A stretch of 64,000 bases of DNA from Devosia sp. Root436 (GTDB taxonomy: Bacteria > Pseudomonadota > Alphaproteobacteria > Rhizobiales > Devosiaceae). The stretch covers positions 1 through 64,000 of the forward strand of contig NZ_LMEM01000009.1 in the NCBI RefSeq assembly GCF_001426345.1, read 5' to 3'. Under the pieces are notes generated by a model that worked only from the letters and a program-made list of their open reading frames with translations, was not told where the DNA came from and made no database searches. Shown one piece after another: positions 32,128 to 41,677 of this stretch (positions within the stretch are counted from its first letter, which is position 1; each line of letters begins with the position of its first letter). The position numbers and the translations under genes were made by a program.

Positions 32128-32562
32128 ATGATCGCCAAGTTCTTCATCACCGCAGTCGCCGCCGTCGCCATCGCTGCCTCGGCTGCCCCCACCATGGCCA
32201 ACGACGTCTTCGTCAACCAGTTCGGCTTCGGCAATGCCGCCGGCGGCAGCCAGCTCGGCTGGAACAACAAGCTCGGCATGCACCAGACCGGCAACTGGAA
32301 CACCGCAGTCGGCCACCAGAATGGCGGCAACAATGTCGGCGCCATCGGCCAGCAGGGCAACAACAACTATGGCGACACCTGGCAGAACGGCTGGAACAAC
32401 GCCGCCGGCGTCGGCCAGTTCGGCGACAACCACACCGCAGTCCTGACCCAGGACGGCAATGGCAATGTCGCGGCCGGCGTGCAGGTCGGCAATGGCTGCA
32501 ACGCCAATGTGGTCCAGGCCGGCTCGGGCAATGTCACCGCCTTCGTCCAGGCCTGCCCCTGA
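32128..32562 (+). CDS. Curlin-like 11-residue-repeat amyloid protein 1
   Basis: Predicted secreted amyloid subunit. 144 residues from the ATG at 32128 after ACAGGAG. Signal peptide to about residue 24 (AAPTMA). The rest is ten back-to-back 11-residue units of the form Q-x-G-x-x-N-x-x-x-x-x (QFGFGNAAGGS, QLGWNNKLGMH, QTGNWNTAVGH and so on), ending QACP. Curlin strands use the same Q-x-G-x-N pattern. Two Cys, in the ninth unit and the C-terminus, are unusual for curlins. It is followed by csgH and a second curlin-like gene; no csgG, csgE or csgF is in the window. Confidence 0.8.
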   Translation: MIAKFFITAVAAVAIAASAAPTMANDVFVNQFGFGNAAGGSQLGWNNKLGMHQTGNWNTAVGHQNGGNNVGAIGQQGNNNYGDTWQNGWNNAAGVGQFGDNHTAVLTQDGNGNVAAGVQVGNGCNANVVQAGSGNVTAFVQACP

Positions 32563-32587
32563 TCGGCTCCTTACGTGAGCTGCAAAT

Positions 32588-32613
32588 AGCCGGAAGGGCC
32601 AACCCTTCCGGCT
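32588..32613. other. Strong intercistronic hairpin between curlin-like gene and csgH
   Basis: AGCCGGAAGGG, a CCAA loop, and CCCTTCCGGCT form an 11-bp perfect stem without a T-run. It sits 26 nt after the curlin-like stop and 31 nt before the csgH start. It may stabilise the upstream message or partly terminate, giving more fibre subunit than chaperone; this is inference. Confidence 0.6.
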
Positions 32614-32643
32614 CGCCTGCCCAACCGATTTCAGGAGGAAGCC

Positions 32644-33027
32644 ATGACCATCCCATCCCGGCGCAGCAGCGCCATCGCCATCGGCCTCGTCGTCGCCACG
32701 CTGGCAGCCAGTGCCGGCCTCGCCAATTCCACCAGCACCGCCCAATGTGGCCTCGCCACCAGTTCCGAACGCGGCATGCTGGCGCTCGAGGGCACCATCA
32801 TCAGCCCGGTCGCCATCAGCGGCGAATACCGCCTCGCCATTCGCAGTTCAGGTAATGGCGGCTCGTCCAATATCAGCCAGGGCGGCTATTTCACCGCCAA
32901 TGCCAACGAGGCCACGCCGCTCGGCAAGGTGCTGATCAATGCCGGCTCCAGCTACAGCATCGACTTCGATGTCACCGCCGGCGGTGCCACGATCGATTGC
33001 GACCAGGACATTGCGAGCCTGCGTTGA
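32644..33027 (+). CDS. csgH: CsgH-like curli amyloid inhibitor
   Basis: Periplasmic chaperone of the CsgC/CsgH type that stops premature curlin polymerisation; CsgH is the alphaproteobacterial form. 127 residues with a signal peptide ending near AGLAN. The mature part has the features expected of the beta-sandwich: MLALEGTIISPVAISGEYRLAI split by a turn, the SSNISQGGYFTA strand and a C-terminal TIDCDQ. Two Cys could form a disulphide. AGGAGG ribosome-binding site. Position between two curlin-like genes strongly supports the call. Confidence 0.78.
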   Translation: MTIPSRRSSAIAIGLVVATLAASAGLANSTSTAQCGLATSSERGMLALEGTIISPVAISGEYRLAIRSSGNGGSSNISQGGYFTANANEATPLGKVLINAGSSYSIDFDVTAGGATIDCDQDIASLR

Positions 33028-33050
33028 AAACACGACATCGAGACGGCTGA

Positions 33051-33078
33051 GGGCTCCGGGACACCGGGGCCCTTTTTC
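33051..33078 (+). terminator. Rho-independent terminator after csgH
   Basis: GGGCTCCGG / CCGGGGCCC stem (9 bp with one G-U), short loop, then TTTTT. It suggests the second curlin-like gene has its own promoter. Confidence 0.8.
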
Positions 33079-33080
33079 TT

Positions 33081-33103
33081 ACCTCTCCCTTTGGGGGAGA
33101 GGT
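33081..33103. repeat. Family B repeat, single end
   Basis: Identical to the 23-nt left end of the element at 30178-30303. Only this end is present, directly behind the csgH terminator. Confidence 0.7.
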
Positions 33104-33234
33104 GAAGGCGCCCCCCGCCTGAATCGCTGAACCCATTCTGAACATCCCGCTCCAAACCGGTTCAGTCGCTTCCCCCTAGTGTCAGGTCATCGGCTGGAAC
33201 ACCAGCACCAACCAGACCCTCAGGGAGAGATGCC

Positions 33235-33654
33235 ATGACCACCAAGTTCACCAGAACCTTCGCCGCCGCCTTCGTAGCCGCCGTCATCGGCGTCGCCGGC
33301 CTTGCCGCCCCCGCCATGGCCGCCGGCCAGGTGTCGATCAGCTTCACCCCGACCGACCCGGACCAGCAGCAGGCGCTCGGCACCGGCCTCCAGCTTTTCT
33401 CGCTGATGCAGGGCCTGTCCTCGACCGGCGCCAATGCCAGCCAGCATGGCAACTTCAATTCGGCCGGCTTCAATCAGAACGGTTCCGGCAATCATGGCCT
33501 GATCGTGCAGGAAGGCGATGGCCACCAGGGCACCATCGAGCAGAACGGCAACAACAATAATTGCGGACTGTTCCAGTTCGGCGAAAACACCAACGGCCAG
33601 TGCGTGCAGAATGGCGACGGCCAGTCGAGCATCACGACTGTCTTCGGGTTCTGA
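33235..33654 (+). CDS. Curlin-like 11-residue-repeat amyloid protein 2
   Basis: 139 residues with a signal peptide to about residue 29 (AAPAMA). A non-repetitive segment (VSISFTPTDPDQQQALGTGL) is followed by six 11-residue units from about residue 70: QHGNFNSAGFN, QNGSGNHGLIV, QEGDGHQGTIE, QNGNNNNCGLF, QFGENTNGQCV, QNGDGQSSITT. It has fewer repeats than its neighbour and a longer N-terminal region, as expected of a minor or nucleator subunit; that role is inference. Two Cys again fall in the repeat region. Confidence 0.75.
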   Translation: MTTKFTRTFAAAFVAAVIGVAGLAAPAMAAGQVSISFTPTDPDQQQALGTGLQLFSLMQGLSSTGANASQHGNFNSAGFNQNGSGNHGLIVQEGDGHQGTIEQNGNNNNCGLFQFGENTNGQCVQNGDGQSSITTVFGF

Positions 33655-33674
33655 TAGCAACCGATCTCGACACG

Positions 33675-33702
33675 ACGGGCCCCTCGGGGCCCGTTTTCGT
33701 TT
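33675..33702 (+). terminator. Rho-independent terminator after curlin-like gene 2
   Basis: ACGGGCCCC-TC-GGGGCCCGT followed by TTTCGTTT. It ends the curli-like locus before the convergent pbpC. Confidence 0.8.
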
Positions 33703-33739: not shown

Positions 33740-35872
33740 CTAGTTCAAGAACACGGTCACCGTGTCCGCCCGACCCTCGGCATCTACCACCGATAGCGTG
33801 ACGAAGCCGGGACCGTCGGGTTCCCACAAGCTCTGGCGGGCAAATTCGGGGCGGCCGAAGGGCGCGCCATTGGCGAAGAAGGTGAAGGGCGGCACACCAT
33901 TGCGCACTTTGACCATCAGTGACGACATAGCGCCTTCGGCCAACCCCAGATCGACATCGACGCCATCGCCGGGAAAGGCGATTTCCGGAGCGGCGACGCG
34001 CGCGACCATATCTTCGTCCGGGTGACGGAAGCGGCGCAACGGGGTGGGCAACTCGCTGTTGGAGGCCAGGACCGCGCCCTGCGGCGCCCGGGGCAATGGC
34101 GCCTTGCGATTGCCCAGGCGGTCGAAGGCCTCGAACAGGATCGGCGCGGCGCCGGTAATGCCGGCAAGGCCCGGCACCGGGGCGCCATCGGGGCGACCGA
34201 CCCAGACGCCGATAACTGTCTTGCCGTCGAAGCCGATGGCCCAGCCATCGCGATAGCCGTAGGAGGTGCCGGTCTTGTAGGCGATACGGCCCGGCGATCC
34301 GTTGAGCGGCGGCGGTACGTCGGCGAGAATGTCGGAGACATACCAGGCGGCTATCGGGTCTAGCACCGGGGCAGCGATCTCGGCGGCCGGCGCCGGATAG
34401 ATGCCGTCATGGAGCTGGATCGGCATGCCGCCATTGCCGATGGCGGCATAGACCGAGACCAGATCGCGCAGGGTGATGCCGACGCCACCGAGTCCTACGG
34501 CGAGGCTGGGTGCGGTATCGACCGGCAGGCGGGGCTCGGCATGGGCGCGGCGCAGGCGCGAGACGAGGCGCGCCGGGCCGACCGCATCGAGCACCACCAC
34601 GGCGGGGATATTGAGCGATTCCGTCAGGGCATCGTGGATGGTGACCGTGCCGCGATTGAAGCCGTCGAAATTGACCGGGACATAGGCGCCGAAGGCGGTT
34701 GGACGATCCTCGATCATGCTCTGGGGATGGGCCAGGCCCAGTTCGAAGGCGAGGCCGTAGATCAGTGGCTTGAGGGTCGAGCCGGGCGAGCGGATGGCAT
34801 TGGTCATGTCGACGAAGCCGGCGCTTTCGGTGGCCAGCAGGCCCGCCGAGCCCACCGACGCCAGCACTTCGCCGCTGGCGATATCGGCGACTACGATGGC
34901 GACCGACACTTTTGGATCGATCAGGCGGGCACGACCGGCGGCGAGGTGCTCCAGGGCATCCTGCAAACGCTTGTCGATGGTCAGTTCTACCGAACGCGCC
35001 TCCGGCTGCGCCCTGACCGCCTGCTCGGCCATGTGGGCAGCCAGCATGGGGAAATCGCGGCGGGCCGATGACACCGGCTCTCGCTTGGCAGCGATGGCGT
35101 CCTCCTCGAGCAATGCGCCCATGGCCACCAGCCGGTCGAGCACCATGTCGCGGCTGCGCCGGGCCGCCACCGGATCGCGGTCGGGGCGGCGGGCCTCGGG
35201 CGATTGCGGCAGCGCCACCAGCAAGGCCGCTTCGGCGGTAGTGAGGCGCGTCGGCTCCTTGCCGAAATAGGCCAGGGTCGCGGCGCGAATGCCCTCGATA
35301 TTGCCGCCATAGGGCGCCAGCGTCAGGTAGAGGTCGATGATCTCGTCCTTGCCGAGATCGTGTTCCAGCCGGTCGGCATGCACCATCTGGCGCAGCTTGC
35401 CCCAGACATTGCGGGTCGGCTCGCCCTCGATCAGCCGCGCCACCTGCATGGTGAGCGTCGAGCCGCCCGAGACGACGCGGCCACCGGCGCCGACGAACTG
35501 GCCGGCGGCGCGCAGCATGGAACTCCAGGCAATGCCGTGATGGTCGGCAAAGCCACGATCCTCGTAGGCAATGAGCATATCGATGAAGCGCGGATCGACC
35601 GCCGTCCGGTCCACCGGCAGGCGCCAGCGACCATCGCCGGTGGTGAAGGGCCGCAGCAGCAGGCCATCGCGGTCGGTTACGGCGACGGAAACCGGCAGTG
35701 TCGCCAGATCGGGCGTCGGCGGCAACGTCGCGGCTATGCCGATGATGGTGGAATTGAGCTGGATCGCCCCTGCGCAGGCGAGGACGAAGAGGCCAAAGCC
35801 GGTGAGGGTCAGCCAGCGCGTCCAATGGCGGCGATTGGCTGGGCCGGTATCACTCATAGGTTCGCGACCCAT
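33740..35872 (-). CDS. pbpC: Bifunctional penicillin-binding protein 1C
   Basis: Class A PBP with glycosyltransferase and transpeptidase domains. About 710 residues; starts at GTG 35875, ATG 35872 or ATG 35857 are all possible and none has a clear ribosome-binding site. Membrane anchor ~20-42; GT51 motifs AYEDRGFADHHG and GGSTLTMQVARL; transpeptidase SxxK in SPGSTLKPLIYG and KTG in YKTGTSYGYRDGWA; C-terminal PBP1C-type beta domain. pbpC next to an alpha-2-macroglobulin gene is a widespread pairing, thought to couple wall repair to protease trapping. Confidence 0.95.
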   Translation of the reverse strand: MGREPMSDTGPANRRHWTRWLTLTGFGLFVLACAGAIQLNSTIIGIAATLPPTPDLATLPVSVAVTDRDGLLLRPFTTGDGRWRLPVDRTAVDPRFIDMLIAYEDRGFADHHGIAWSSMLRAAGQFVGAGGRVVSGGSTLTMQVARLIEGEPTRNVWGKLRQMVHADRLEHDLGKDEIIDLYLTLAPYGGNIEGIRAATLAYFGKEPTRLTTAEAALLVALPQSPEARRPDRDPVAARRSRDMVLDRLVAMGALLEEDAIAAKREPVSSARRDFPMLAAHMAEQAVRAQPEARSVELTIDKRLQDALEHLAAGRARLIDPKVSVAIVVADIASGEVLASVGSAGLLATESAGFVDMTNAIRSPGSTLKPLIYGLAFELGLAHPQSMIEDRPTAFGAYVPVNFDGFNRGTVTIHDALTESLNIPAVVVLDAVGPARLVSRLRRAHAEPRLPVDTAPSLAVGLGGVGITLRDLVSVYAAIGNGGMPIQLHDGIYPAPAAEIAAPVLDPIAAWYVSDILADVPPPLNGSPGRIAYKTGTSYGYRDGWAIGFDGKTVIGVWVGRPDGAPVPGLAGITGAAPILFEAFDRLGNRKAPLPRAPQGAVLASNSELPTPLRRFRHPDEDMVARVAAPEIAFPGDGVDVDLGLAEGAMSSLMVKVRNGVPPFTFFANGAPFGRPEFARQSLWEPDGPGFVTLSVVDAEGRADTVTVFLN

Positions 35873-35880
35873 CACGGAGC

Positions 35881-35964
35881 GTCACCCTCGGGCTTGACCC
35901 GAGGGCTCTATACTTACCGCTTGCTCCGCAAGTGTAACGCCCTCGGGTCAAGCCCGAGGGTGAC
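35881..35964. repeat. REP-like inverted repeat, family E
   Basis: A 25-nt arm at 35881-35905 (GTCACCCTCGGGCTTGACCC...) is repeated as its exact reverse complement at 35940-35964. It lies just upstream of pbpC, and its arms resemble family D at 5452-5541. Confidence 0.8.
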
Positions 35965-35979
35965 GGCTGGTGGGTGTGG

Positions 35980-36033
35980 AAGGCCCCCTCACCCGTCGGC
36001 TTCGCCGCCGACCTCTCCCCCAAAGGGAGAGGT
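35980..36033. repeat. Family B repeat, right half
   Basis: AAGGCCCCCTCACCC followed by the 23-nt end at 36011-36033 matches the right half of the full element at 30178-30303. It lies between pbpC and the alpha-2-macroglobulin gene. Confidence 0.7.
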
Positions 36034-36070
36034 GGGAGTGCGTACGACCCGCAATGCACCAACGCGGTCA

Positions 36071-39000
36071 TCATGGCCCGGCCGGCGTGACCTCGATGGC
36101 GCCGGCAGCCGTGTTCGCCCGGAATTCGGGACGATACATGTCTTCCACCGTGGCGCCGGGCAGTACGAACGTACCCGGCGACACCGCGCGCACCAGATAG
36201 GCGGTGGTGAAGCTGCCGGTTTCGTCGAAGTAACGGAAGGCCGCGACATACTGGTCGGTGCGGGATTCGACATGGCTGGCGCTGTCGAGCTCGAGCCAGC
36301 TGAAGTCATTGACGCCACCGCCCGCCGACAGGTCGGGATTTTCGATCTCGAAGCCCGCAGGCAGCGGATCGGCTACCACATACTGGCCCGAACCGAGCGT
36401 CTGCGGCCGCACGCGCAGCACCACGATCAGCCGCTCGTTCTGCGCGATGGGCGCAGCCTGCGGATCGATCGGCGTGCCGTCGGGCAGGAAGTATTCGCGC
36501 GTGATGGTGAAACCGCTGCTGGTGGCTGGCGGCGGCGTGAGCGGATAGCCGGTCACGGTCACCTTGGCCTCGGTATCATCAGTGCCGGTATTGGCGACCT
36601 CGACCGTTGCGAAACCCTGCTGCTCGTAGCGGCGGTAGACCTGGCCGGTCAGGGCCTCGCCATCGAGCGTCACCGAGCCATCGGTGCTGGATGCACCAAG
36701 TGCGGCGGCGGCGAGCAGGGTCCAGCTATCCTCCTGTGTCGAGGTATAGGTGGCGCGGTCGCGCAGCTTGGCGAGCTGGTTGGCCAGATCGGTCAGGTTG
36801 ACGCTGTCGGGCTTGAACTCGGCAGCCAGAGCCAGCACACCGGCCAGATCGCGCAGGCGGGTGCCATAGTCGCCGCGATAGCGCCGGATGTTGTCAGGGG
36901 CAGTGAGCCCGGCCACGGCCGCTTCGAAGGCGGAATTGGCCCGTGTCGGATCGCCGTAGAGCGCCAGTGCCGCCCCGAGTTGCGCCTGGGCCAGGGGCGA
37001 GCCGAAGGCCGAGAGGCGCGCCTCGTGATAGTAGCGCAGATCGCCCATGGAGACCCGCCCTGCCCGCGCCAGGTCGTAGAGCGCATAGGCGATATCCTCG
37101 CCGCCCTTGTCGAAATCGGCGGCGTAGGACAGCTGGTTGGCGAGATTGTCGAAGGCCATGGTCATCGACTGCTCGGGCACATCGTAGCCGGCGGCCACGG
37201 CGCGCTGCAGGAAGTCTGTGACAAAGCCGTCGAGCCACAGGTCACCGCCATCGAACGGCCCCCAGAGGCCGAAGCCGCCGTTGGAGCTCTGTTTGGAGAG
37301 CAGGTTGGCGATGGCGTCGATGACCGTCTGGTTGAGCTTGTCGTCACCCGCTATGCCCACGAGCTTGGCCACGTCGTTGAGATAGAGCAGCGGCAGGGCC
37401 CGGCTCGATAGCTGCTCGGCACAGCCATAGGGATAGCGATCGAGAGCCAGCAGCAGGCCGGGCACGTCGAGACGCGCGATCGGCCCGATAGCCAGGGTCA
37501 TCGCCCCGGTATCGGACATGTAACTGTCGAAGAAGTCCGGTCCGACGGTGATGCTTTCGCCGGCCTTGATCGGCAGCACGCGGCTGGTGGTGACCGGCGC
37601 AGAGGTGGGCCGCACGCCGAGGAGCAGTTCCTTGGTCTGCATCGCGCCGTCGGGCGCCGTGATGGTCAGCACCACCGGCCAATCGCCGATCTGCATGCCG
37701 TTGAGCGTGAGGTCAAGCGCGGTTCGATCGCCGACCGCCAGTTCGACCTGGGTATCCGCGGCCGGGGTGGCGATGCCTTCACCGGTCGAGAGCGATACGC
37801 CATAGCTGCCCGCGCCACCGCTGAGATTGTTGATCTCGACCAGCAGGCGAGACTCATCGCCGACCCGCAGGAAACGCGGCGGGCTGAGGGTGACAACGAC
37901 AGGATCGCGCACAATGACATCGGCCGAAGCATGGCCGACCGCTGTCTCGGTCCAGGCCATGGCCATGACCCGCACCGTGCCGGAGAAATCGGGCATGTCG
38001 AAGGTAATGATTGCCTTGCCCTCGGCATCGACTTCCACAATGCCTGAATGGAGGGCAACGAGGACCGAGGTTGCCGGGGGTGTGCCGGTGCGCGAGGCAC
38101 CGCCGTCGCCGCCCGAACGCATGGCGCCGGCCAGACCCTGGGTCGGATCGATCAGCGAGCCATAGAGGTCACGTATATCCATGCCGAGCTGACGCTGGCC
38201 AAAATACCAGCCGTCAGGGTTCGGCACCTTGAAATTGGTGAGATTGAGAATGCCCAGATCCACCGCCGCCACCGCGACATAGGCCTGCTGGCCGGCAGCC
38301 AGATTGCCCAGTTCGACCGTGGTGGTGAAGCTCTGGCGCGGCAGGGTGACCTCGGGCGTGTCCAGCGTCACGTCGAGCTTGCGGTCGCCGGGCTCGACAT
38401 CGGCAAAGGCGAGGCCCAGGGCCCGTGATGGCATGCGCTTCTCGGCGGCGTCGGACGGACGATAGAGGATCGCCGTGACATAGGCGCCGGGGCCCCATTC
38501 TTCAGTGACCTCCAACGGAACCGTGGTGCCGCCCTCGGGCACGTCCACCGCCTGCATGGCGATGACGCGGTTATCGACAACCATCACCAGCGCCGTGCCG
38601 GCAAACTGCGGATCGAGCTTGAGATTGGCGGTTTCGCCGACGCGATAGGCTGGCTTGTCGAGCGCCACCTGCAGCGTGTCGGGCGTGTCGCTGCCCGCAT
38701 CGGCGTAATAGTAGCCGGCATAGAACTCGTAGCTGGACGAGGTGGCGCCCTCGCCGGTGCTTTGCACCTCGACGCGATAGCGGCCCCAATCGACATTGGC
38801 ACCGATGGTTACCGGGCCGCCGTCAGGCGTAGCGGCGGTGCCGCTGGCGACTTCGCGCGAGGTGGTGATGGCCTCCCACTGCCAGGTGCTGCCATTGCGG
38901 TACCATTGATAATTGGTTTCGATGCGGGCGATGGTCCAGTTGAGGCCTGTCCTGGCAATGGCCTCGCCATCCGGAGAGACGGCGACGATATCGAAGCTGG

Positions 39001-41569
39001 CTTCGCTGCCTTCGGCAAGGCCCGAAGCGTCACTGAAGACCGGCTTGATGCCGATGCGATCGACGGTGGCGAGCAACGGCCGGCTGATGCTGCGTTCGAT
39101 GCTGCGGCCATTGCTGTCGATGAGGCGGAGCAGCAGTTGCGCCGTGAGCGGTCGCGTCGTGGCCTGCGGCTCGGGCAGCACGATTTCGGCAACGACATTG
39201 CCGGCGTCATCGGTGGTGCCGACAACGCCCAGCGGTTCGCGGGTGGTTTCGATCGTGTCGTCGAGGCGACCAAACGTGTAGCCCGGAAAGCCTTCCAGCG
39301 TGCTCCTCGGGCTGACGATGGCATCGGCCTCGACGGCCAGATTGGGCGCCGTGGCGCCATAGAGATACTTGGCAGCAATATCGACCTCGGTGACCTCGCC
39401 GGCCACGACGGGCGCATCGGCGGCGCTGACCTCGAAGGCCAGGCGCTCGGGCTCGAAATCTTCCACAAGGAAGCTGGTGCTGGAAAGAGCCTGCGCGTCG
39501 GGGTCGGCATAGAGCCGGGCGGTCCACGAGCCGCGCATGGCTTCGGCCACCATGGGCAAGGCGACGAAATAGCCGCCCGCACCCTGGTCGTTGAGCAATT
39601 GCGTGCTGGCGACGACGCCATCCGGGCGCTCGACCTCCAGCGTCAGCGGCAGGCCGGTTACGGCAACGGCCCGTTCATCACGCAGCAAAGCAGTGAGATA
39701 GACGGTTTCGCCGGGGCGATAGACGCCGCGCTCGGTGGTGGCGAACAGGTCGAGCGGACCCGGCGAGGGCCGGCCCTCGACGCCGCGATCGGTCAGGTCG
39801 AAAGCCGGGCGGCCGAGGTCGAGGAAGGCATAGTCGCCATCATCGGTTTCGGCGACCAGCAATTGCGGCGCCCTGCCCCCTTCGCCGCGCGCCAGGCCCG
39901 GCGCAAAAATGGCGCGGCCATCGGCATCGGTGGTGGCTTCGCCCAGGATTTCATTGTTGACGGCCACAAGGCGCACGGTGGCGCCTTCGACCGGCTGGGC
40001 ATCATCGAGGCCGCGCACGAAGGCATGGACGCCGTCGTCGCCAGAAATGGTGGTGAGACCGAGGTCGGTAACGATGAACCACTGCGTGGCCACGCTGTCC
40101 CAGTATTCGGTATTTTCGTCCTTGATCTTGGCGGTGATCACATAGGCGCCCGCCTCCATCTGGCCAATCGTCTCGGCCACCGGAATGGCCGTAGTGGTCA
40201 ATTCGTTCGGCTGACCGCGCGCCAGATCGACCTCGCCCTGCCAGACCTGTTCGCCGACACGGCCGGCAATGTCCTCGGCGTCATACTCGGTGAGGCTGCC
40301 CTGGAAGATGCCATCGCGTACGGCGGTCGCTATCGAGCGGTCGCCAACGCGATAGATCATGACCTGAGCCACATCGGCATTGACCGAGGTGATCGGCAGA
40401 CCGCCGCCGAGACCGGCGGGCATGACATAGGCATTGTTGGCAAAGCCGACAAAGGGCGAGCGATCGGGCACGTAGACGTCGAGCACGACATCCTTGAGCA
40501 GTTCCTCGCCATCGACCGACGGCAGGCCGGCGCGCAGGCGAATGGCATAGCGCCCGCCATGCTGCACGCCCTCGATGCAAATCTGGTCCTGCTCGGCCTC
40601 GACGGCGGCCTGCGGCGTATCGGTGACGACCACATAGGCCGAAAGGTCGGTGGAACTGTAAGGGAGCGGGCTGGAGAAGACGGCGCAGATGCGCGGCGCG
40701 GCTCCCTCGGCATCGACGACGTGATTGACCACGCGGAAGCCATGCTGGGCAACGACATCGTCGAGATGCGTCGCGACCCCATCATTGGCGGCCAGTTGGA
40801 GGCTCACGCGATAAGTGGCGATCACCTCCCGCCACATTTCGCGATATTCCATGCCATTGGCGAGGGTGGCCAGGGCATTGGCGCGATCCAGCGGTGCACT
40901 CGCGCGCAGGAAGGCATTCATGGCAGCGGCGGTGGCAACCCGCGCCAGATCGGCGCTGTTGTCGCCTTCCGACTGCCCCGCGACCATCTCGGCCTGCGTC
41001 AGTGCGGCCTGGGCCAGTGCCTGCCAGACCGCACGGTCATTGGCGTTGATGGCCAGCGCCTGCCGATAGGCGACGATAGCTGCAGCGGGGTTGTCGGCAG
41101 CGGCGGCTTCATTGCCGGACTGCACCAGGCTGGCATAGGTCACCTTGGGCGGCGGCGCGTCGGTCTGGAGCAGGTTGTTGGCGAAACTGCGGGCGTCGCC
41201 GATGATACCCTGGGCGGGGAATGGCAGTTCGGCCTGACGGACAGCCTCGATCACCGCAGGCGACGGCGCGCGGCTGACCCGTCCGGACGTGGCGCCGGAA
41301 AATTCTGTCGGCTCGCCCACGGTGCCCTTGAGGAAGCACCAGTTCGACTGCGAATTGAAGGTGAAGGCCCGGCAGATATTATCGCCGGCACAGGCCGCGC
41401 TGCAGGCGTCGAGGTCGGTGTTGCGGATAATCGAATAATCGTAACCCGGCAGATCGGTATTCGGCAGTTGGGTGATCTTGTAGTCCGCTGCCATCGCCGC
41501 TGCCGGCAAGCCCAGGGCGAGAATAACAGCCAGGCCCAGCGCACGCATCTTCGAGACGATCTGCAGCAT
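36071..41569 (-). CDS. yfhM: Alpha-2-macroglobulin family protein with N-terminal PAN domain
   Basis: Giant periplasmic protease trap, 1,832 residues. The ATG at 41569 follows GGAGGGA by 6 nt; the frame is open to 41677. Signal peptide ending PAAAMA without a lipobox, so probably soluble or otherwise anchored. A PAN/apple-like domain (about 25-100, with DLDACSAACAGDNICRAF) precedes a helical TPR-like region, then MG domains. The thioester motif is GCAEQ with Cys near residue 1383, followed by the helical thioester domain. Directly upstream of pbpC. The PAN-like domain and CAEQ in place of the more usual CLEQ are worth noting. Confidence 0.93.
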   Translation of the reverse strand: MLQIVSKMRALGLAVILALGLPAAAMAADYKITQLPNTDLPGYDYSIIRNTDLDACSAACAGDNICRAFTFNSQSNWCFLKGTVGEPTEFSGATSGRVSRAPSPAVIEAVRQAELPFPAQGIIGDARSFANNLLQTDAPPPKVTYASLVQSGNEAAAADNPAAAIVAYRQALAINANDRAVWQALAQAALTQAEMVAGQSEGDNSADLARVATAAAMNAFLRASAPLDRANALATLANGMEYREMWREVIATYRVSLQLAANDGVATHLDDVVAQHGFRVVNHVVDAEGAAPRICAVFSSPLPYSSTDLSAYVVVTDTPQAAVEAEQDQICIEGVQHGGRYAIRLRAGLPSVDGEELLKDVVLDVYVPDRSPFVGFANNAYVMPAGLGGGLPITSVNADVAQVMIYRVGDRSIATAVRDGIFQGSLTEYDAEDIAGRVGEQVWQGEVDLARGQPNELTTTAIPVAETIGQMEAGAYVITAKIKDENTEYWDSVATQWFIVTDLGLTTISGDDGVHAFVRGLDDAQPVEGATVRLVAVNNEILGEATTDADGRAIFAPGLARGEGGRAPQLLVAETDDGDYAFLDLGRPAFDLTDRGVEGRPSPGPLDLFATTERGVYRPGETVYLTALLRDERAVAVTGLPLTLEVERPDGVVASTQLLNDQGAGGYFVALPMVAEAMRGSWTARLYADPDAQALSSTSFLVEDFEPERLAFEVSAADAPVVAGEVTEVDIAAKYLYGATAPNLAVEADAIVSPRSTLEGFPGYTFGRLDDTIETTREPLGVVGTTDDAGNVVAEIVLPEPQATTRPLTAQLLLRLIDSNGRSIERSISRPLLATVDRIGIKPVFSDASGLAEGSEASFDIVAVSPDGEAIARTGLNWTIARIETNYQWYRNGSTWQWEAITTSREVASGTAATPDGGPVTIGANVDWGRYRVEVQSTGEGATSSSYEFYAGYYYADAGSDTPDTLQVALDKPAYRVGETANLKLDPQFAGTALVMVVDNRVIAMQAVDVPEGGTTVPLEVTEEWGPGAYVTAILYRPSDAAEKRMPSRALGLAFADVEPGDRKLDVTLDTPEVTLPRQSFTTTVELGNLAAGQQAYVAVAAVDLGILNLTNFKVPNPDGWYFGQRQLGMDIRDLYGSLIDPTQGLAGAMRSGGDGGASRTGTPPATSVLVALHSGIVEVDAEGKAIITFDMPDFSGTVRVMAMAWTETAVGHASADVIVRDPVVVTLSPPRFLRVGDESRLLVEINNLSGGAGSYGVSLSTGEGIATPAADTQVELAVGDRTALDLTLNGMQIGDWPVVLTITAPDGAMQTKELLLGVRPTSAPVTTSRVLPIKAGESITVGPDFFDSYMSDTGAMTLAIGPIARLDVPGLLLALDRYPYGCAEQLSSRALPLLYLNDVAKLVGIAGDDKLNQTVIDAIANLLSKQSSNGGFGLWGPFDGGDLWLDGFVTDFLQRAVAAGYDVPEQSMTMAFDNLANQLSYAADFDKGGEDIAYALYDLARAGRVSMGDLRYYHEARLSAFGSPLAQAQLGAALALYGDPTRANSAFEAAVAGLTAPDNIRRYRGDYGTRLRDLAGVLALAAEFKPDSVNLTDLANQLAKLRDRATYTSTQEDSWTLLAAAALGASSTDGSVTLDGEALTGQVYRRYEQQGFATVEVANTGTDDTEAKVTVTGYPLTPPPATSSGFTITREYFLPDGTPIDPQAAPIAQNERLIVVLRVRPQTLGSGQYVVADPLPAGFEIENPDLSAGGGVNDFSWLELDSASHVESRTDQYVAAFRYFDETGSFTTAYLVRAVSPGTFVLPGATVEDMYRPEFRANTAAGAIEVTPAGP

Positions 41570-41677
41570 CGTTGTCCCTCCCAAGCTCAACGCCATCATA
41601 TGGACGCGAAGCTGAGGCGGAAACAAGGCCACAACAATATCGGATCGCCAGAAGATTAACGTTTGCCAATCCAGCAA

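What the first reader, a model, noticed from the sequence alone, without database searches (positions are those of the whole stretch)
32128..33654. Compact curli-like locus with strict 11-residue repeats, a CsgH-like chaperone, and Cys-containing subunits
Two secreted proteins consist of consecutive 11-residue Q-x-G-x-x-N units (ten and six units) and flank a CsgH-type curli inhibitor. No CsgG/E/F exporter or CsgD regulator is in the window. The 11-residue strand without the usual paired 22-residue curlin repeat, and two Cys in each subunit and in CsgH, are unusual and could mean redox-controlled or cross-linked fibres. The first subunit looks like the major and the second like a minor or nucleating subunit.
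Basis: partly seen in the sequence, partly recalled or inferred. Interest (0 to 1): 0.75.

Follow-up and report, generated by a model that had tools for sequence, protein, structure and literature searches.

The report
Curli-like gene trio lacking its exporter
This bacterium, a Devosia relative, carries a conserved three-gene set for curli-like fibres with a matching anti-clumping chaperone, but its genome shows no sign of the pore known to export curli, so how the fibres would leave the cell is an open and testable question.

Summary
The locus is real: csgA (32128-32562), csgH (32644-33027) and csgB (33235-33654) match Curlin_rpt and CsgH models and PDB 2N59. It belongs to a published class, CsgA/B+CsgH clusters without CsgEFG (PMC3521004; PMC12822426). 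The own genome (99.97% complete) has no CsgG, CsgF or CsgE match. That is usual here: 71 of 79 CsgH-bearing genomes of the family and 42 of 53 in an order sample lack any CsgG-family match. Added here: gene order A-H-B recurs across families; 62 of 81 CsgA are 143-145 aa; Cys pairs of CsgA and CsgB come and go together; dN/dS is below 1 throughout; 54 of 56 distinct exporter-less CsgB end in F or W, against 1 of 21 curlin ORFs in type I loci. That tail has the terminal core, but never the full consensus, of an outer-membrane beta-signal. Best reading: curli-like fibres exported by an unidentified non-CsgG route. The route was not found and amyloid formation is untested.

The parts
32128..32562 (+). 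csgA-like major curlin subunit, 144 aa, 11 consecutive 11-residue units, C-terminal Cys pair (C124, C143)
   Evidence: Pfam Curlin_rpt 48.6 bits; unit spacing; orthologue alignment; profile hits PDB 8c50 E 2.4e-23 and E. coli CsgA 8enq E 4.1e-4
32588..32613 (+). hairpin (11 bp stem, 4-base loop, no T run) between csgA and csgH; possibly an mRNA-stability or attenuation element
   Evidence: Sequence; first 60 bases after csgA: window z -4.5, mean z -2.07 over 66 distinct stretches, 31 of 66 below -2, 15 of 66 not below -1; stems differ in sequence between loci. In some loci the 60 bases run into csgH
32644..33027 (+). csgH, periplasmic CsgC/CsgH-fold anti-amyloid chaperone (by family), 127 aa, Cys at the family disulphide positions C35 and C119
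   Evidence: PF21112 67.5 bits; NF041112 91.7 bits; PDB 2N59 E 1.3e-10
33049..33074 (+). intrinsic-terminator-like hairpin with T run between csgH and csgB, which would give csgB its own transcript
   Evidence: 2 such sites found in the 2-kb stretch; shuffles give a mean of 1.6, so statistically weak; no sigma-70-type promoter match found
33235..33654 (+). csgB-like minor curlin, 139 aa: non-repeat N-terminal segment with a predicted helix, six regular 11-residue units, Cys pair C110/C123, C-terminus VFGF
   Evidence: Curlin_rpt 24.7 bits; alignment; C-terminal tally; PDB 8c50 E 3e-15
33674..33695 (+). terminator-like hairpin after csgB
   Evidence: same caveat

Best explanation
An exporter-less curli locus of the CsgA/B+CsgH class. 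CsgA (major) and CsgB (minor, presumed nucleator) are carried by Sec into the periplasm, where CsgH keeps them from forming amyloid. Intramolecular disulphides close one beta-arch in CsgA and one in CsgB. The subunits then cross the outer membrane by a route other than CsgG, encoded elsewhere or provided by a housekeeping machine, and assemble as curli-like beta-solenoid fibres nucleated by CsgB. Shown here: family membership, recurring gene order, no CsgG/E/F match, conservation, purifying selection, Cys pairing pattern. Inferred: Sec export, chaperone action, disulphides, nucleator role, surface fibre. Unknown: the route through the outer membrane.
For: Profile matches. No CsgG, CsgF or CsgE match in the own genome; 71 of 79 CsgH-positive genomes of the family and 42 of 53 CsgH-positive genomes in a 397-genome order sample lack any CsgG-family match, among them genomes listed with one contig such as G014, G022, G025, G062 and G072, so assembly gaps are not the cause. 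71 of 80 CsgH ORFs outside the nine type I loci have a curlin ORF just upstream and 51 of 80 one downstream, same strand. Nei-Gojobori dN/dS is below 1 in all 36 comparisons (12 pairs x 3 genes), range 0.08-0.50. CsgH of Rhodopseudomonas palustris inhibits E. coli CsgA amyloid formation in vitro (PMC4838910 passages).
Against: No exporter was found, so a surface location is not shown. The AlphaFold models are of low confidence (mean pLDDT 53.8 and 52.3) and Foldseek gave no match at E <= 0.001. Two basic residues of the set mutated together in R. palustris CsgH (R45, K47) are N and S in the window protein, and N in 54 and S in 47 of 80 CsgH outside type I; the window CsgH mature part is net -4 (residue mapping is mine, from the alignment). 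29 of 80 such CsgH ORFs had no curlin ORF found downstream (some lie at contig ends).
Confidence: 0.62

Rival explanations
1. Periplasmic amyloid or structural protein: without CsgG, CsgA and CsgB stay in the periplasm, with CsgH limiting polymerisation, and never form surface fibres.
For: No CsgG/E/F match; the chaperone is kept beside the subunits; no exporter candidate recurs in the flanks across families.
Against: A major/minor two-subunit arrangement is the logic of surface nucleation, and free periplasmic amyloid would be expected to be harmful (established knowledge of curli, not tested here).
Confidence: 0.15
2. CsgB carries an outer-membrane targeting tail: its conserved C-terminal [FYW]-G-[FW] strand docks on BamA, placing CsgB in or across the outer membrane and replacing the CsgG-CsgF platform.
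For: 54 of 56 distinct type II CsgB ends are F or W (the other 2 end GWR), over nine families. Aromatic at -1 with hydrophobic at -3: 51 of 56 CsgB, 20 of 23 OMP_b-brl tails, 2 of 79 CsgA, 0 of 21 curlin ORFs of type I loci, 32 of 1207 other ORFs and 20 of the 295 of those with a signal-like start.
Against: The full consensus (polar-x-G-x-x-hydrophobic-x-hydrophobic; PMC10945584 passages) is met by 0 of 56 CsgB against 19 of 24 OMP tails. The mature protein is N/Q/G-rich (45%), unlike a membrane barrel. The tail could be a solenoid cap. The sequences are related, so the counts are not independent.
Confidence: 0.12
3. Redox-controlled or disulphide cross-linked fibres.
For: Cys pairs in CsgA and CsgB.
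Against: Pairs are both present or both absent with a single exception in CsgA, and by repeat register sit at the start and end of the last two units (CsgA) or at inward positions of neighbouring strands (CsgB) (inference), which suggests internal staples. CsgB outside the window's family lacks the pair (0 of 19; 27 of 37 within it).
Confidence: 0.07
4. Decaying remnant of a full curli operon that has lost csgEFG.
For: No exporter; a type with linked CsgF- and CsgG-like genes exists in the order.
Against: dN/dS 0.08-0.50, CsgA length 143-145 aa in 62 of 81, recurring gene order, and both types in the same genome in G011, G039 and G124.
Confidence: 0.03

Closest known systems
CsgA/B+CsgH curli clusters of Alphaproteobacteria (Dueholm 2012, PMC3521004, passages; PMC12822426, section 10 read)
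   Same: Curlin subunits next to csgH, without csgE, csgF, csgG. The 2012 paper says that for many Alphaproteobacteria only the subunits could be identified, with csgH in the operon; the 2025 paper lists CsgA/B+CsgH among the five commonest cluster compositions.
   Different: No difference in kind seen. Added here: recurring A-H-B order, narrow CsgA length, paired Cys, conserved F/W C-terminus of CsgB.
Escherichia coli curli (type VIII secretion, csgBAC/csgDEFG)
   Same: Curlin repeats, two subunits, periplasmic chaperone of the same fold family.
   Different: CsgH in place of CsgC; no CsgE, CsgF or CsgG match in the genome.
Type I CsgH curli loci of the same order (L074, L075, L085-L091)
   Same: Curlin gene next to csgH.
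   Different: Main curlins mostly long (347-1327 aa); a CsgG-family gene in 8 of 9 loci (not L075) and a csgF-like cluster in 7 of 9; 1 of 21 curlin ORFs ends in F/W.
R. palustris CsgH (PDB 2N59)
   Same: Sequence match E 1.3e-10, both Cys aligned.
   Different: Basic residues R45 and K47 correspond to N and S.

Membership tests
CsgA/B+CsgH exporter-less curli class | csgH adjacent to curlin-repeat genes | tested here: met
CsgA/B+CsgH exporter-less curli class | no csgE, csgF or csgG near or in the genome | tested here: met
   whole genome, six frames, E <= 0.001
Type VIII (CsgG-dependent) curli system | CsgG outer-membrane pore | tested here: not met
   0 matches in own genome; E. coli control rings
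Type VIII (CsgG-dependent) curli system | CsgE and CsgF | tested here: not met
   E. coli control rings in both
Type VIII (CsgG-dependent) curli system | CsgD regulator | not tested
   No search made; [quoted passage not shown]
Curlin subunits (CsgA/CsgB) | Curlin_rpt above cut-off | tested here: met
   48.6 and 24.7 bits, cut-off 20.7
Curlin subunits (CsgA/CsgB) | beta-solenoid fold | tested here: inconclusive
   11 evenly spaced strands in the CsgA model but pLDDT 53.8 and no confident Foldseek match
Curlin subunits (CsgA/CsgB) | amyloid fibre formation | not testable with these tools
   needs purified protein
CsgH | CsgH profile and two distant Cys | tested here: met
   Cys pair in 85 of 89 CsgH ORFs
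CsgH | basic surface patch needed for inhibition | tested here: inconclusive
   Partly lost at aligned positions; no structure made
Outer-membrane beta-signal (CsgB tail) | C-terminal hydrophobic-x-aromatic core | tested here: met
   51 of 56; the window CsgB ends F-G-F
Outer-membrane beta-signal (CsgB tail) | full consensus with Gly at -6 and polar at -8 | tested here: not met
   0 of 56 against 19 of 24 OMP controls

The most novel reading that the evidence does not exclude
Exporter-less curli use the BAM complex instead of CsgG: CsgB's conserved C-terminal [FYW]-G-[FW] strand engages BamA and its N-terminal helix holds it at the outer membrane, making a surface nucleator and an exit for CsgA. 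That would be a second, CsgG-independent route for curli secretion.
Probability: 0.1. Interest if true: 0.8.

Novelty: new member of a known kind. Interest (0 to 1): 0.42.

Why it matters
CsgH-bearing curli loci without CsgG were noted in 2012 with the remark that alternative proteins must fill the missing roles (PMC3521004 passages), and the searches listed under Tried and rejected gave no answer. In the genomes sampled here this is the rule rather than the exception for CsgH carriers (71 of 79; 42 of 53), the trio is under selection, and its CsgB has a sharply conserved end seen in only 1 of 21 curlin ORFs of type I loci. This gives a concrete, cheap handle (the last three residues of CsgB) for asking how curli cross the outer membrane without CsgG.

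Tried and rejected
Distant or unlinked CsgG: the Pfam family reaches weak relatives (52-59 bits in G028, G033, G036, G038, G074; the one in L020 rescanned gives PF03783 alone at 58 bits), yet the own genome gives none at E <= 0.001. Exporter in the flanks: clustering of ORFs in 85 fetched loci plus the window (CsgH found in all but L076) showed no outer-membrane gene recurring beside type II; flanks differ between genera. Clusters were judged by recurrence and by eye; I did not run family profiles on all neighbours. CsgB N-terminus as a CsgF-like plug: hhalign probability 0.5%, rejected. Secretin as exporter: present in 133 of 136 genomes of the family; the three without include one CsgH carrier, G005, 82% complete; uninformative. 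Class-level spread: CsgH in 6 of 385 genomes, the own genome included, 5 of 385 over the cut-off, too few to test the CsgB tail outside the order. Literature: the searches gave no exporter for this class and no mention of a CsgB beta-signal (listings seen; passages or a section read in nine papers); only open-licence PMC papers are held.

CsgA tallies (81 sequences, start codons chosen by script) include fragments and divergent paralogues. The CsgB tail count uses distinct last-60-residue ends of ORFs with at least three Q-x-[GN]-x-x-[NDS] motifs and a profile score above 25 bits (56); the CsgB Cys count uses 58 aligned sequences. The 21 curlin ORFs of type I loci include a few that look spurious by eye. 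The 1207 background ORFs were chosen mechanically and will include spurious ones. Of 30 OMP loci 3 gave no clean frame and were dropped; 27 were read, 23 distinct 10-residue tails, 24 distinct 12-residue tails; one of these (L140) was read on the wrong strand and counts as a miss, so the control is slightly understated. The -1/-3/-5/-7 pattern was chosen after seeing CsgB and is not used as evidence; the F/W ending was also noticed before it was counted.

Full report
What is there. The window lies in contig C9 of a 3.92-Mb, 16-contig, 99.97% complete genome. Its own name is not given; of five named relatives of CsgH, four are Devosia records and one an unclassified alphaproteobacterial MAG, and Devosia is Devosiaceae, Hyphomicrobiales, so 'family' and 'order' below are taken to be these. 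Three genes lie on the + strand: csgA 32128-32562 (144 aa), csgH 32644-33027 (127 aa), csgB 33235-33654 (139 aa). CsgA and CsgB score 48.6 and 24.7 bits with Curlin_rpt (cut-off 20.7), CsgH 67.5 bits with PF21112 and 91.7 with NF041112, and E 1.3e-10 with the NMR structure 2N59 of a CsgH. A CsgA profile finds the solved curli subunits 8c50 and 8enq, a CsgB profile finds 8c50.

Repeats. Mature CsgA is eleven 11-residue units with Q in exact register; no shuffle of 20,000 reaches this. Sleutel 2023 (PMC10192328, passages only) describes the curlin repeat as two motifs joined by XGXX, with QX10Q kernels; an 11-residue spacing is therefore half a standard repeat, and the strictness here is a regular version of it, not a different fold.

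No exporter, and this is usual here. Own genome: CsgG 0, CsgF 0, CsgE 0. In 136 genomes of the family CsgH occurs in 79, Curlin_rpt in 85, the CsgG family in 12, CsgF in 7; 8 of the 79 CsgH genomes have any CsgG-family match, five of these only at 52-59 bits. In 397 genomes drawn from the order, CsgH occurs in 53 and the CsgG family in 40, together in 11; in 7 of the 11 the two lie on one contig within about 13 kb. CsgE is absent from all 33 genomes tested, all CsgH carriers. Dueholm 2012 (PMC3521004, passages) already reported Alphaproteobacteria with only subunits plus csgH, and a 2025 review (PMC12822426, section 10 read) lists CsgA/B+CsgH among the five commonest compositions, which make up 3846 of 4723 clusters. 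So the locus is a new member of a known kind. Against too strong a reading: Sleutel 2023 found CsgG missing in only 1033 of 43279 CsgA genomes, so the class is rare in RefSeq as a whole.

Two architectures. ORF clustering in 85 fetched loci plus the window separates nine type I loci (mostly long curlins and csgH, with a CsgG-family gene in 8 and a csgF-like cluster in 7 of 9) from type II, to which the window belongs: csgA, csgH, csgB in that order. Of 80 CsgH ORFs outside type I (76 loci), 71 have a curlin ORF directly upstream and 51 one downstream. Flanks differ between genera. In many Devosia-type loci the trio lies near genes that I recognise by eye as flagellar (no profile was run on them); in the window it lies between a peptidase M32 and an ABC-type ATPase on one side and a class A penicillin-binding protein and an alpha-2-macroglobulin on the other. 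No exporter candidate recurs.

Constraint. 62 of 81 CsgA sequences are 143-145 aa and 71 of 81 are 141-149 aa, over most families sampled, whereas curlins in general have 3 to 52 repeats. dN/dS is 0.08-0.42 for csgA, 0.09-0.50 for csgH and 0.09-0.40 for csgB in 12 pairs each. The trio is thus not decaying.

Cysteines. CsgH: both Cys in 85 of 89; this is the known family disulphide. CsgA: both in 65 of 81, one in 1; CsgB: both in 28 of 58, never one; in the set the CsgB pair is in 27 of 37 of the window's family and 0 of 19 elsewhere. Pairing suggests intramolecular disulphides. By register the CsgA pair lies at the start and end of the last two units and the CsgB pair at inward positions of adjacent strands (inference). 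No bond was tested.

CsgB ends. Of 56 distinct type II CsgB ends, 54 are F or W and 2 are GWR, across nine families. Aromatic at -1 with hydrophobic at -3 holds in 51 of 56, against 20 of 23 outer-membrane beta-barrel (PF13505) tails from relatives, 2 of 79 CsgA, 0 of 21 curlin ORFs of type I loci, 32 of 1207 other ORFs and 20 of the 295 of those with a signal-like start. The full beta-signal consensus given in PMC10945584 (passages) is met in 0 of 56, against 19 of 24 controls. So the tail resembles at most the terminal core of a beta-signal; membership fails. A solenoid cap or another docking role is equally open. The N-terminal segment of CsgB (helix predicted at mature residues 13-31, low confidence) shows no similarity to CsgF.

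Regulation. A hairpin without T run follows csgA (window z -4.5; mean -2.07 over 66 stretches), and terminator-like hairpins follow csgH and csgB (2 found against 1.6 expected by chance). This would fit more CsgA than CsgH and separate expression of csgB; inference only.

Verdict. A curli-like system of the known exporter-less CsgH class, probably making surface fibres through an unidentified outer-membrane route. The main open point is that route; the conserved CsgB tail is the sharpest handle found.

Noticed in passing
L075 (G051:C1:205000-222000): A CsgF-like gene, a 1306-aa curlin ORF and a divergent CsgH (found only by the session's own CsgH profile) lie together in a genome listed with one contig and without any CsgG-family match: an apparent type I locus that also lacks CsgG.
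   Followed up: partly
L112, L113 (family f40, genus g55): Several csgA-csgH pairs in one genome, up to three within 20 kb, mostly without an adjacent csgB.
   Followed up: no
L060 (G059:C1:1012982-1031242): Tandem duplication csgA-csgH-csgA-csgH-csgB.
   Followed up: no
G028, G033, G036, G038, G074: Weak CsgG-family genes (52-59 bits) far from, or on another contig than, the CsgH site of those genomes; role unknown.
   Followed up: partly
window 33740-41677 (-): Class A penicillin-binding protein next to a bacterial alpha-2-macroglobulin with an N-terminal PAN domain, downstream of the trio on the opposite strand.
   Followed up: no
CsgH in the window and relatives: Basic positions mutated in R. 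palustris CsgH (R45, K47) are N in 54 and S in 47 of 80 CsgH outside type I, so the inhibition surface may differ.
   Followed up: partly
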